NCBI GenBank assembly: GCA_021848605.1
Contig: JAJZUM010000004.1
Coordinates: 1 to 40,866, forward strand
DNA: 40,866 nucleotides
Origin: Pseudomonadota bacterium
Lineage (GTDB): Bacteria > Pseudomonadota > Gammaproteobacteria > Pseudomonadales > Moraxellaceae
Direction: 5' to 3'
Below the pieces are notes generated by a model that worked only from the letters and a program-made list of their open reading frames with translations, did not search any database and had not been told where the DNA came from. The number at the start of each line of letters is the position of its first letter. Position 1 is the stretch's first letter. Positions 13,591-17,873 of this stretch are shown piece by piece. Both the position numbers and the translations under genes were made by a program.

Positions 13591-14088
13591 ATGAGTTTGA
13601 AACGACTACGATGTTTTTCACGGATCTTTAGGCAATTCCACTGGCTGCTGATATGGGGTCTCCTTGGTTGTCGTGGGGCCATGGCTGCCACGAATACCAC
13701 GAATGATAGTGGTTTGGACCTGGTTTCGGAGCTTGGTCATGTCGTGTATGTTGATTTCTGGGCTTCGTGGTGCGGTCCGTGCCGCCAGTCGTTCCCCTGG
13801 ATGAACCAGATGCAGCAGCGCTATGGAGGTCAGGGTCTTGTTATTCTGGCCGTCAATGTTGATGAACAGCATGAAGATGCCCTGAACTTTCTGCAGCAAC
13901 ATCCAGCTGGTTTTCGGGTCATTTATGACCCAAAAGGTCTATTAGCCAGTCACTATGCGATCCCCGGCATGCCCACCACTCTTGTTTTTGATCGAAAAGG
14001 ACATTTGGTTGAACAGCGCTCAGGATTCCGAATTGCCGATGAATCGCATTATGAACAAGCTCTACAGGCTATTCTGACTCGTCCCTGA
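13591..14088 (+). CDS. TlpA-like periplasmic thioredoxin-fold protein
   Basis: A 165-residue thiol-disulfide protein. A basic N-terminus and hydrophobic stretch (WLLIWGLLGC) end in GAMA, consistent with a signal peptide, so it acts in the periplasm, possibly tethered. The redox motif is WASWCGPCR, followed by a TlpA/ResA-like fold with cis-Pro segment GMPTTLVFD. It is followed within 15 bp by the DUF4266 lipoprotein gene and then by DUF3570 and apbE. This set recurs together in proteobacteria, which suggests it maintains thiols or disulfides of that extracytosolic system (inference). The Cys-rich tail of the next gene's product is one possible partner. Confidence 0.9.
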   Translation: MSLKRLRCFSRIFRQFHWLLIWGLLGCRGAMAATNTTNDSGLDLVSELGHVVYVDFWASWCGPCRQSFPWMNQMQQRYGGQGLVILAVNVDEQHEDALNFLQQHPAGFRVIYDPKGLLASHYAIPGMPTTLVFDRKGHLVEQRSGFRIADESHYEQALQAILTRP

Positions 14089-14102
14089 ACAGGAGTCACT
14101 CC

Positions 14103-14318
14103 ATGCTGAAAATATTAGCCATGTCGGGACTTGTGCTGGCGTTGGCGGGCTGCACTCATCTTGGGGTCAAGCCTTGGCAACGGGGATTGATGGCCCGGGC
14201 GGACATGCAAGTTGATCGTGATCCGGTAGAAACTTCAATCGATGATCATATCTATTTTAGCAAAGAAGCATCCAGCGGTGGTCGAAGTTTTGGTGGGGGC
14301 GGATGTGGTTGCAATTGA
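14103..14318 (+). CDS. Small DUF4266 lipoprotein with Gly/Cys tail
   Basis: A 71-residue protein. A signal sequence ends in a clear lipobox (LALAGC, Cys about residue 17), then the DUF4266 core PWQRGLMARADMQVDRDP, and it finishes with a Gly-rich tail containing CGCN. It is an outer- or inner-membrane-attached lipoprotein. An AGGAG site lies about 8 nt ahead of the ATG. It sits between the thioredoxin-like gene and the disrupted DUF3570 gene. The terminal CxC could be a metal or disulfide site and a client of the neighbouring thioredoxin (inference). The molecular function of DUF4266 is unknown. Confidence 0.85.
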   Translation: MLKILAMSGLVLALAGCTHLGVKPWQRGLMARADMQVDRDPVETSIDDHIYFSKEASSGGRSFGGGGCGCN

Positions 14319-14837
14319 TCAGGTTTTTGCACGATGAATTTTAACAGCAGGGATCGGTTGGCTTTAGCGAGTTGTTTGCTGGTAACCGGAATGACGGTAC
14401 AGGCAGATTGGTCTGCGGATGATTCCGGGGATTCAGCAATGACTTCAAGTTCTGCGCCTTCATCGGCTGATCTGGGTGCATTGTACTATCAGGAAGATGC
14501 CCATCGTGTTCAAGTCGCTGAGGGTGTTGTTGCCTTGCATAATGTTCAGACGGATGAGAGTAGCTGGGATCTGCGTTTGACCATCGATGCGCTCAGTGGT
14601 GGCTCACCCAATGGTGCATTGCCGAGCCGACAGGTACAAACCTTCGCTAATCCATCCGGTCACACGCTGCAAGCGACCCAGGTGGTTCAGACGGCTCCGG
14701 GTGTTCAGACTTGTACCACCGCCTCTGGAGTTGCTTATGTCTGTGGGGCAACTGCGGGTGGCTCCTCGGTGATTGGCAATTCTTCTTTGTATCAGGTTCC
14801 GGCTGGCAGTCTGCCTCTGGACGGCAGTTTGTAGTGG

Positions 14838-15677: not shown

Positions 15678-15718
15678 AGAAATGGCCTCCTTTTCCAGTA
15701 ACGAGATGAGGTGATAAG

Positions 15719-16015
15719 TTATCTCAGTTCGCGGGCAAAGAAGGCCGACGCTTTTTTTAGTATTTCATTATCCTGTCGTAATTGGCGATTCTCAGACTCA
15801 AGCAGCCGAATACGTTGCTGCTCTTCAGTTAACGGCTTTCCTATACCTGGTTTCCCTTGAAGCTCAGCCTGATATTGCACAACCCAACGTCTAAGGGCCG
15901 ATTCACTAATCGTCAGGTTCTTACTCACCTGGGAGACAGATAGGCCCTGATCCAGGATCATTCGGACAACTTCAATTTTATAACTAGCATCATATAAACG
16001 TTTTTGCTGACTCAT
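15719..16015 (-). CDS. IS3-family OrfA (helix-turn-helix transposase subunit)
   Basis: A 98-residue protein with an N-terminal helix-turn-helix ([20 protein letters not shown], then [16 protein letters not shown]) that binds the element's ends, and a leucine-zipper-like C-terminus ([20 protein letters not shown]). It ends at ARELR. Upstream of the stop lies a CTA-AAA-AAA-G sequence, a -1 slip site. The orfB frame, read after such a slip, is open through the orfA stop, so an OrfAB fusion transposase can be made. Intact. Confidence 0.93.
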
Positions 16016-16997
16016 GTCTAATCCTCTTGAGTGGTTATTATCCTCCTATCAAGGTGTCCACGGAAATTAGACCACTACAGTTTTCATGATCGGCGTGAAG
16101 CGATTGATCTGTCCTATGCGTCCCCATCCGGTGATACCTAGCACTGGAATACAGGAGGTGCCTATTCCCATGAGATGGATTTTCAGTCCATGTCCGTTCA
16201 GGGCTCGGTTGCGCAAGACTTCAATCAGAAAAACACCACGCTTGCGCTTGGGGTAAATCTGGAACACGACACCAATAATCCTGTCGGGGGGACTCCGCAA
16301 CCGCTCAGCAACTATAGCCTGTTTGAAAAAACCAGTAACTCAAGCAAAAACCTGGCAGACGTCTTGCTGGGGCTGACCCAGATTATGACCGAGCGCTGGC
16401 TGACCGCAATTAATATTTCTGGAGAACAGTCCCACGGTTACATGAATGATCCCTACAAGATTGTTTCCGGCCTGGATGCTCAAGGCAATGTTGTCGGTTA
16501 TATCTATGAAAACCGGCCAACAGCGCGTAACAAGACGGTATTGTTTTGGGATAATCGCTATGCCTTTGATCATGACAGTATGGATATTTCCTTGCGTTCC
16601 ATGCGTGACAGTTGGCAGATTCATTCATTGACCGCAGATTTGCATAATCGCTATTTGCTGGGTGATGGCCAGTTTGTTGAACTGCACTACCGCTGGTACC
16701 GACAGTCAGCAGCTTATTTCTATCGGCTGTATGTGCTGCAAGGGCAACCCTACCTGAATGAAGTTTCGGCAGATCCAAGACTGGGTGCCTTTGATGCCCG
16801 TACCGTTGGCATCAAGTACGGCTACGCTCTTGATCAGGACTCGACGATCAGTATTCGCCTGGAACGCTATCAACAATACACCCACATCAGCCAGTCGGTG
16901 TTGCCCCAGTTACAGGGGTTGAATCTGTATCCAGGTTTGGGAGCAACATTTGTCGAAGCAGACCTGCAGTTCAAATATTGAGGCGTTGACTCTTCAG

Positions 16998-17873
16998 GTG
17001 CGACCCGGGGGTGTGCTCGCGGTTTGCTTCACTGCCATGGCTAGTCCTTGTGAACTTTTGTTTGTCAGTTCTGATGACATACTTGTTCGGGAACTGGGAG
17101 CCATGGCAGTTCAGGAAATACAACGAATTGAACAACGCTACAGTCGGTACCGCCCGGATAGTATTTTAAGTCAAATCAATGCTTCTTCGGGTACGTCGAT
17201 TCTCGTTGATGAAGAGACATCGCGCTTACTCGAATATGCATCATTGGCCTATGAATTGAGTGAAGGCCTTTTTGATATCAGCTCAGGTTTGCTTCGGCGC
17301 GTCTGGCATTTCGATGGCTCTGACCGAATCCCTGAACAAAATGCTATTGATACCCTGCTGCCCTATGTGGGGTGGCATCAAATTGATTGGCAAAAACCTA
17401 TTTTTCAAATGCCCGAAGGCATGGAATTGGATCTGGGTGGGATTGGTAAAGAATATGCTGCTGACCGGGTTTTGCAGCTGCTGCAGTTGCAAACGGATTT
17501 GCCATTTCTGGTCAATCTTGGTGGGGATCTGTGTTGTCGGGGTACACCTGCATGTGGATTTTGGCAGGTAGGTGTTGAACGCCCTAATCAACTCAATACG
17601 CCGCAACTTGTACTTGATCTGAGTTGCGGCGGGCTCGCCACCAGTGGCGACACTCGGCGCTACCTCCAGGTGGGCAACAGACGCTACGGTCATATCCTCA
17701 ATCCAAAAACAGGATGGCCCGTTCAGGGTGGTCCCCGTTCGGTGACGGTTGCAGCGCCCTATTGTGTGCAGGCCGGCATACTGGCAACGATGGCTTTACT
17801 TCAAGGCGCAGCTGCTGAAGCATTTTTGCAGGATGCCGGGGTACAATACTGGTGTTTGCACGATGATGCCTGA
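16998..17873 (+). CDS. apbE: FAD:protein FMN transferase (ApbE family)
   Basis: Transfers FMN from FAD to Thr/Ser of target proteins (flavinylation). Family hallmarks are the early AM(A)SPCELL segment (AMGT-like), LDLGGIGKEYAADRVL, NLGGDLCCRG, SGDTRRYLQVG and HILNPKTGWPV, then a C-terminal Mg-binding region. The start is uncertain: the frame is open from TTG 16950, which overlaps the preceding gene; GTG 16998 is a compromise, and GTG 17013 is possible. None gives a signal peptide, which is odd because most ApbE proteins act outside the cytosol. It is the last gene of the thioredoxin-DUF4266-DUF3570 group. No flavin-acceptor motif of the SGATxxT type is seen in the neighbours. Confidence 0.88.
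   Translation: MRPGGVLAVCFTAMASPCELLFVSSDDILVRELGAMAVQEIQRIEQRYSRYRPDSILSQINASSGTSILVDEETSRLLEYASLAYELSEGLFDISSGLLRRVWHFDGSDRIPEQNAIDTLLPYVGWHQIDWQKPIFQMPEGMELDLGGIGKEYAADRVLQLLQLQTDLPFLVNLGGDLCCRGTPACGFWQVGVERPNQLNTPQLVLDLSCGGLATSGDTRRYLQVGNRRYGHILNPKTGWPVQGGPRSVTVAAPYCVQAGILATMALLQGAAAEAFLQDAGVQYWCLHDDA

What the first reader, a model, noticed from the sequence alone, without database searches (positions are those of the whole stretch)
13591..17873. Thioredoxin, DUF4266 lipoprotein, DUF3570 and ApbE in one cluster, with the DUF3570 gene destroyed
These four genes are consistent with an extracytosolic flavin or redox system: ApbE attaches FMN, TlpA-like protein handles thiols, and DUF4266/DUF3570 are surface components with no known function. 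As I recall, this set recurs in proteobacteria. Here the barrel-like member is broken while the other three stay intact, so the pathway may still be partly used or has only just been lost. ApbE also lacks a signal peptide and no flavin-acceptor motif is visible in the neighbours.
Basis: partly seen in the sequence, partly recalled or inferred. Interest (0 to 1): 0.6.

Follow-up and report, generated by a model that had tools for sequence, protein, structure and literature searches.

The report
Flavin relay broken by jumping gene
A known bacterial gene set that hangs a vitamin-B2 cofactor on an outer-membrane barrel has lost its barrel gene very recently to a mobile element, and its flavin-attaching enzyme belongs to an odd group that may work inside the cell rather than outside.

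Summary
The four genes are real; their order (thioredoxin, DUF4266, DUF3570, ApbE) recurs in 66 of 80 related loci. The system is published: Meheust et al. 2021 (PMC8238504) showed that a DUF3570 is flavinylated by its neighbouring ApbE. It carries a 1,250-bp IS3-family insertion (14830-16079, GTT on both sides) and a separate TAG (16139). The loss is recent: the downstream piece is 90% identical to the intact copy of sister genome G002, on a short branch. Sister genome G001 has a different lesion. What looks new is the enzyme. ApbEs linked to this kind of DUF3570, the window's included, show no signal peptide (0 of 79, against 72 of 75 thioredoxins) and carry Gly where other ApbEs have the catalytic-triad Asp (96 of 98; 50 of 50 unlinked controls keep Asp). 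Intact relatives model as 16-strand outer-membrane barrels with the flavin site at the end of strand 3. Best reading: FMN is attached in the cytosol before export; here the relay has just lost its last carrier.

The parts
13591..14088 (+). TlpA/ResA-like thioredoxin with signal-peptide-like N-terminus and WCGPC motif
   Evidence: WCxxC in 75 of 76 matching ORFs
14103..14318 (+). DUF4266 small lipoprotein (lipobox LALAGC, recalled rule), C-terminus GGGGCGCN
   Evidence: PF14086 80 bits; 79 of 80 matching ORFs end in exactly CGCN, the other in CGCND
14334..14829 (+). DUF3570 outer-membrane barrel, upstream piece, with flavin-acceptor-like DALSGGS (acceptor Ser codon 14604-14606) and an insertion with two Cys after it
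   Evidence: PF12094 59.4 bits
14830..16079 (-). IS3-family insertion sequence with terminal inverted repeats; GTT on both sides (14827-14829, 16080-16082)
   Evidence: only match in its own assembly, no match in G001 or G002
14838..15677 (-). IS3 transposase orfB (integrase core)
   Evidence: NF033516 329.7 bits, PF00665
15719..16015 (-). IS3 orfA (helix-turn-helix)
   Evidence: PF01527
16080..16978 (+). DUF3570 downstream piece (reading frame from 16082), with premature TAG at 16139-16141
   Evidence: PF12094 229.8 bits; TAG; Trp in the G002 copy
16950..17873 (+). ApbE FAD:protein FMN transferase, TTG start overlapping the DUF3570 end; no signal peptide; Ser232 and His248 kept, catalytic-triad Asp replaced by Gly276; Cys34 and Cys272
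   Evidence: PF02424 227.8 bits

Best explanation
This is a freshly broken copy of the DUF3570 flavin relay (this core: about 0.9). In intact relatives the chain is most likely as follows. Electrons from the inner-membrane DsbD pass to the periplasmic thioredoxin (WCGPC), then to the lipoprotein DUF4266 (C-terminal CGC dithiol), then to FMN covalently held by DUF3570, a 16-strand outer-membrane barrel. The leaderless ApbE attaches the FMN in the cytosol, to the unfolded barrel precursor, before export (this step: about 0.4). In the window organism an IS3 element and a stop codon have just removed the barrel, so ApbE has lost its likely substrate and the thiol relay its terminal carrier. Shown here: gene order, lesions, recency, absence of a leader, Asp-to-Gly. 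Shown in print: an ApbE flavinylates a DUF3570. Predicted: barrel fold and loop side. Inferred: direction of electron flow, site of flavinylation, role of CGC.
For: Published flavinylation of a DUF3570 and the DsbD/Trx/DUF4266 clusters (PMC8238504). Order conserved in 66 of 80 loci. Co-occurrence 27 of 29. Acceptor column ends in S/T in 82 of 82. IS plus TAG. Recent loss: downstream piece 90% identical to intact G002, dN/dS 0.033, whole gene 0.056; end branch 0.019 against 0.082 for the intact copy; no IS match in G001 and G002. Signal-peptide-like starts: ApbE 0/79, Trx 72/75, DUF4266 77/80, DUF3570 67/82. DsbD transmembrane domain encoded elsewhere in the genome.
Against: The acceptor here is SGGS, not the published [S/T]GA[S/T]; I know of no flavinylated SGGS protein. 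No DsbD is next to this cluster. ApbE has Gly at a residue the 2025 review calls conserved and catalytic, so its activity is unproven. The site of flavinylation rests on a home-made hydrophobicity test, not SignalP. 15 of 82 DUF3570s failed a like test. The Methods of PMC8238504 say the C. luteolum ApbE was cloned by a strategy 'similar' to one that used signal-peptide-truncated genes, so the one proven DUF3570-cognate ApbE may have a leader. Both proteins were then made in E. coli that way, so that assay does not tell where the reaction happens in nature. In 16 of 41 further DUF3570 stretches no ApbE was found.
Confidence: 0.65

Rival explanations
1. The cluster is still useful without DUF3570: leaderless ApbE flavinylates another protein, and Trx/DUF4266 serve general thiol chemistry.
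For: ApbE, Trx and DUF4266 are open and show low dN/dS against G002 where it can be estimated (Trx 0.08, ApbE 0.07). In G001 ApbE is open beside a broken DUF3570 remnant.
Against: The loss is too recent for dN/dS to show relaxation, and dS is near saturation. The only FMN_bind match in the assembly has its own adjacent ApbE on contig C216. No DUF2271 or Nqr/Rnf match in the draft.
Confidence: 0.15
2. DUF3570-linked ApbE is exported without a recognisable leader, or the flavin is attached in the periplasm by another ApbE and the linked ApbE does something else (its catalytic-triad Asp is missing).
For: Gly at the Asp site in 96 of 98 linked ApbEs. Beside DUF3570s with an SSAS motif, 2 loci have a leader-bearing, Asp-bearing ApbE (L137, L138).
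Against: Ser and His of the triad and the DLGGIGK and GGD motifs are kept. ApbE was found in 76 of the 80 DUF3570 loci. In print a DUF3570-cognate ApbE flavinylates its partner (PMC8238504).
Confidence: 0.25
3. The IS and TAG are assembly or binning errors and DUF3570 is intact in the organism.
For: The genome is a draft of 219 contigs, 91% complete.
Against: IS with inverted ends and GTT on both sides, assembled inside a 40.9-kb contig, one match in its assembly, none in the sister genomes. Two separate lesions. A sister genome has its own lesion.
Confidence: 0.05

Closest known systems
DUF3570/DUF4266/thioredoxin/ApbE flavinylation clusters (Meheust et al. 2021, eLife, PMC8238504; 'DsbD systems' and 316 clusters without DsbD)
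   Same: Same four families; CXC end on DUF4266; ApbE next to its substrate.
   Different: Acceptor barrel gene broken by an IS and a stop; acceptor motif SGGS instead of [S/T]GA[S/T]; no DsbD in the cluster. In the passages I read the paper does not discuss a leaderless ApbE or a missing Asp for this group, or a barrel fold.
Canonical periplasmic ApbE (V. cholerae, S. enterica; review PMC12052999)
   Same: PF02424 domain; Ser and His of the catalytic triad; DLGG.GK and GGD motifs.
   Different: No leader or lipobox; the Asp that the review numbers 285 in V. cholerae is Gly; Cys in AMASPCE where 42 of 50 controls have Tyr or Trp.
Cytosolic ApbE of Klebsiella pneumoniae for soluble fumarate reductase (described in PMC12052999)
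   Same: ApbE without a signal peptide.
   Different: That substrate is described as soluble, its ApbE as cytoplasmic; DUF3570 has an export leader and models as an outer-membrane barrel.
IS3-family insertion sequences
   Same: orfA/orfB, TG...CA ends, 3-bp duplication.
   Different: Nothing unusual; the best DNA match outside the window in 58 relatives is partial, 89% over 298 bp, in another genus (G004).

Membership tests
DUF3570-type flavinylation system (PMC8238504) | ApbE adjacent to DUF3570 | tested here: met
DUF3570-type flavinylation system (PMC8238504) | Intact flavinylation substrate DUF3570 | tested here: not met
   IS3 insertion and TAG; no second copy in the assembly. The locus is filed as a decaying remnant of the system, not as a working member.
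DUF3570-type flavinylation system (PMC8238504) | [S/T]GA[S/T] acceptor motif in DUF3570 | tested here: not met
   SGGS at the aligned column; Asp and terminal Ser kept; 8 of 82 compared sequences, window and G002 included, are SGGS.
DUF3570-type flavinylation system (PMC8238504) | DUF4266 with C-terminal CXC | tested here: met
   PF14086 80 bits; ends CGCN
DUF3570-type flavinylation system (PMC8238504) | Thioredoxin-like protein in the cluster | tested here: met
   WCGPC protein, PF08534/PF00578; the paper counted PF13899, a different Pfam model
DUF3570-type flavinylation system (PMC8238504) | DsbD in the cluster (DsbD subset only) | tested here: not met
   The only DsbD_TM match over the cut-off in the genome is on contig C133. 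The paper also describes 316 clusters without DsbD.
ApbE (FAD:protein FMN transferase) | ApbE domain | tested here: met
   227.8 bits, cut-off 25.6
ApbE (FAD:protein FMN transferase) | Conserved Ser, His and Asp of the catalytic triad (PMC12052999) | tested here: not met
   Ser232 and His248 present, Asp replaced by Gly276. In 50 controls Asp was kept in 50, Ser in 48, His in 45.
ApbE (FAD:protein FMN transferase) | FMN transfer activity | not testable with these tools
   needs protein
Outer-membrane beta-barrel | Even-stranded barrel with short turns on one side and long loops on the other | tested here: met
   16 long strands counted in AlphaFold2 models of two intact relatives; structure matches are porins, FhaC, BcsC and the like. 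Not run on the broken window protein.
IS3 family | IS3 transposase, inverted ends, 3-5 bp duplication | tested here: met
   (the 3-5 bp rule is recalled)
Nqr/Rnf | NqrB/RnfD subunit in the genome | tested here: not met
   0 matches to PF03116 in the 91%-complete assembly

The most novel reading that the evidence does not exclude
There is a separate ApbE group, leaderless and without the catalytic-triad Asp, that works in the cytosol and loads FMN onto the unfolded precursor of an outer-membrane barrel. The covalent flavin then crosses Sec and is folded into the outer membrane by BAM, ending at the outward-facing end of the barrel as the last carrier of a thiol-to-flavin electron relay to the cell surface. 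A flavin would thus be installed before export, unlike the periplasmic route described for most ApbEs. The window shows this relay at the moment of loss.
Probability: 0.4. Interest if true: 0.72.

Novelty: new variant of a known kind. Interest (0 to 1): 0.45.

Why it matters
DUF3570 is one of few proven ApbE substrates whose job is unknown. Its predicted barrel fold and the side on which the flavin sits point to electron traffic at the outer membrane. If its ApbE works in the cytosol without the usual Asp, two standard points about ApbE (mostly periplasmic action, Ser/His/Asp centre) need an exception, and counts that keep only ApbEs with a predicted leader, as in the first census of PMC8238504, would leave these enzymes out. 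The natural knockouts in this genus (2 of the 3 genomes held) offer a comparison with and without the relay.

Tried and rejected
Nqr/Rnf pairing: no PF03116 match in the draft. DUF2271 as alternative substrate: no match. Sequence relatives of DUF3570 in PDB: none at E<=1. Expression of ApbE from a promoter near the IS: the scan gave 2 promoter-like sites against 5.9 expected, so nothing can be said; a terminator-like stem just left of the IS is likewise at chance level (4 found, 4.9 expected). A stop flagged inside DUF3570 of G340 is only the terminal stop. The first tree is discarded: two rows were translated in the wrong frame; one search is the corrected one, with 20 of the 80 loci chosen by me plus five other rows. 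An FMN_bind role for this ApbE was set aside because contig C216 carries an FMN_bind protein with its own ApbE. An early thought that SGGS means loss of the flavin site was dropped. The signal-peptide test gave one false positive inside an ApbE domain (L192); its limits were slightly wider than. Two linked ApbEs (L040, cut at a contig end; L092, misaligned) could not be scored at the Asp site and count as misses; two partial ApbEs (L128, L132) were left out as too short. The script stopped with an error after printing its control table; its last tally was redone. Papers: PMC8238504 abstract, outline, section 12 and passages; PMC12052999 section 7 and passages; PMC11334425 section 5 and one passage; PMC12811062 passages; all others only as search listings.
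Full report
What is there. Window 13591-17873 holds a TlpA-like thioredoxin, a DUF4266 lipoprotein, a DUF3570 gene in two pieces and an ApbE, all on the + strand. Between the DUF3570 pieces lies a 1,250-bp IS3-family element on the - strand (14830-16079) with imperfect 40-nt inverted ends and GTT on both sides. The downstream piece also has a TAG at 16139 where the intact copy of sister genome G002 has Trp. The window is contig G000:C23 of a 2.6-Mb, 219-contig draft, 91% complete. 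Its family appears to be Moraxellaceae: contigs of genomes of the same family equal named Moraxellaceae records in length (G013:C23 and the Fluviicoccus record of L036; G030:C121 and L046; G046:C14 and L049).

It is a published system. Meheust et al. 2021 (PMC8238504; [quoted passage not shown] My data agree. In the 80 best loci of a DUF3570 search (capped list; 544 relatives were confirmed) the order is Trx-DUF4266-DUF3570-ApbE in 66. Of the other 14, five are cut by contig ends (L057, L061, L069, L092, L109), three hold all four genes but were written differently (L043, L047, L072), in four no thioredoxin was matched (L036, L071, L075, L076), and in L094 and L114 no ApbE was found within about 6 kb downstream. 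In 97 relatives DUF3570 occurs in 28 and DUF4266 in 28, both in 27; G001 has only a DUF3570 remnant and G040 only DUF4266 (Fisher p about 1e-21, not corrected for kinship).

The broken gene is the flavin acceptor. At the aligned column 82 sequences (80 loci, G002, window piece) read TGAS 40, TGAT 12, TGSS 9, SGGS 8, SGAS 4, SGAT 3, SGSS 3, and CGGS, SGST, SGPT once each. The last residue is S or T in all 82. The window and G002 have DALSGGS, followed by an insertion with two Cys that is shared with one of two DUF3570 copies of the Fluviicoccus genome G013. The review PMC12052999 (passages) reports that changing the motif's Ala to Val about halved flavinylation of a fumarate reductase, so SGGS may be accepted, but this is untested.

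The loss is recent and not unique. Between window and G002 the downstream DUF3570 piece is 90% identical (dN/dS 0.033), the whole gene 86% (0.056), thioredoxin 81% (0.08), ApbE 76% (0.07); dS is 1.2-2.4, near saturation, and could not be computed for DUF4266. In a tree of 25 rows the window piece has an end branch of 0.019 against 0.082 for the intact G002 copy, and the two group with G001 and then Fluviicoccus. No match to the IS was found in G001 or G002. G001 carries its own lesion, a TAA in the C-terminal part; the rest lies beyond a contig end, and neither the upstream part nor DUF4266 was found in its assembly. The window copy is closer to intact G002 than to G001, so the two losses look independent. 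ApbE is open in both.

The barrel. AlphaFold2 models of two intact relatives (L036, mean pLDDT 92.9; Acinetobacter modestus L053, 92.2) each have 16 long strands by my count of the printed secondary structure. In that model 7 inter-strand turns are 2-4 residues long and the 8 on the other side 2-71; by the usual rule (recalled) the longer side is extracellular. The acceptor Ser55 sits at the end of strand 3 on that side. Whether the loop folds into the lumen could not be seen, as no coordinates were available.

The enzyme. A hydrophobicity test gave a signal-peptide-like start in 0 of 79 ApbEs (76 from the 80 loci plus window, G001, G002; some pairs are near-identical, so the rows are not independent), 72 of 75 thioredoxins and 77 of 80 DUF4266s, and with slightly wider limits in 67 of 82 DUF3570s. 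The residue aligned with the Asp of the ADAL.T motif of solved ApbEs (alignments; triad as given in PMC12052999 section 7; that this Asp is the triad Asp follows from the FmnB alignment and numbering) is Gly in 74 of 76 ApbEs of the 80 loci, in 3 of 3 of this genus and in 19 of 19 further ApbEs near DUF3570s other than the SSAS type; the two misses are a contig-cut and a misaligned row (L148 repeats G001 and is not counted twice; L143 and C216, both with Asp, are not beside a DUF3570). Cys of AMASPCE is present in 79 of 79 of the first set and in 14 of the 19. Control: 50 ApbEs not beside a DUF3570, the 30 top-scoring loci plus 20 picked by me from the places listed, have Asp in 50 of 50, Ser in 48, His in 45, a Cys four residues before the Asp in 12, and a signal-peptide-like start in 42. 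In 41 further DUF3570 stretches an ApbE was matched in 25 and none in 16. DUF3570s with D..SSAS have a leader-bearing, Asp-bearing ApbE beside them in 2 loci and none found in the fetched stretch of the others. So the leaderless, Gly-bearing ApbE goes with particular DUF3570 types.

Mechanism. Shown: linkage, lesions, recency, absent leader, Asp-to-Gly. Established in print: FMN on a DUF3570 by its cognate ApbE, with both proteins expressed in E. coli by a strategy like that used for signal-peptide-truncated genes, and most DUF3570 in the cell pellet. That wording leaves open that the Chlorobium ApbE has a leader, which would be against my reading. Inferred: ApbE acts before export; electrons run DsbD, thioredoxin, DUF4266 CGC, FMN; the acceptor is unknown (the paper suggests iron for some clusters). 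In the window organism a DsbD is encoded elsewhere, and a second ApbE with an FMN_bind protein lies on contig C216. The most likely fate of the window cluster is loss.

Novelty. The system is known and the window copy is a broken one; the variant part is the ApbE group and the SGGS acceptor. In searches of open-access full texts the only paper with DUF3570, DUF4266 or their Pfam numbers was PMC8238504, and I saw none in my listings on a leaderless or Asp-less ApbE for an exported barrel; subscription papers and preprints outside that library were not searched.

Noticed in passing
G000:C216 (L035, L150), about 5856-8752: A second flavin cluster in the same genome: a 351-aa protein without a Pfam match, an FMN_bind protein (motif SGATLSS), an ApbE also without a clear leader but with the Asp, and a weakly cytochrome b561-like protein (below cut-off).
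   Followed up: partly
L032/L148 (G001:C88 end): Sister genome has DUF3570 reduced to a C-terminal remnant with its own TAA at a contig end, no DUF4266 found in its assembly, ApbE open.
   Followed up: yes
L137, L138, L134-L136, L139-L142, L197-L200: A further DUF3570 type with D..SSAS or SGASIDV motif, next to DUF4266 and usually thioredoxin, with either a leader-bearing canonical ApbE (L137, L138) or none found in the fetched stretch.
   Followed up: partly
window 14650-14800; L019, L034/L036: Insertion of about 35-40 residues with two Cys soon after the flavin site in this DUF3570 subclade, a possible disulfide beside the flavin.
   Followed up: partly
window 17881-18141 (-): Small, weakly FmdB-like protein (below cut-offs) that ends in CCGGGSCGMN, reminiscent of the DUF4266 tail; convergent with ApbE and also present in G002.
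   Followed up: no
   Followed up: no
L145 (G083): Duplicated unit: two thioredoxin-DUF4266-DUF3570 units before one ApbE.
   Followed up: no
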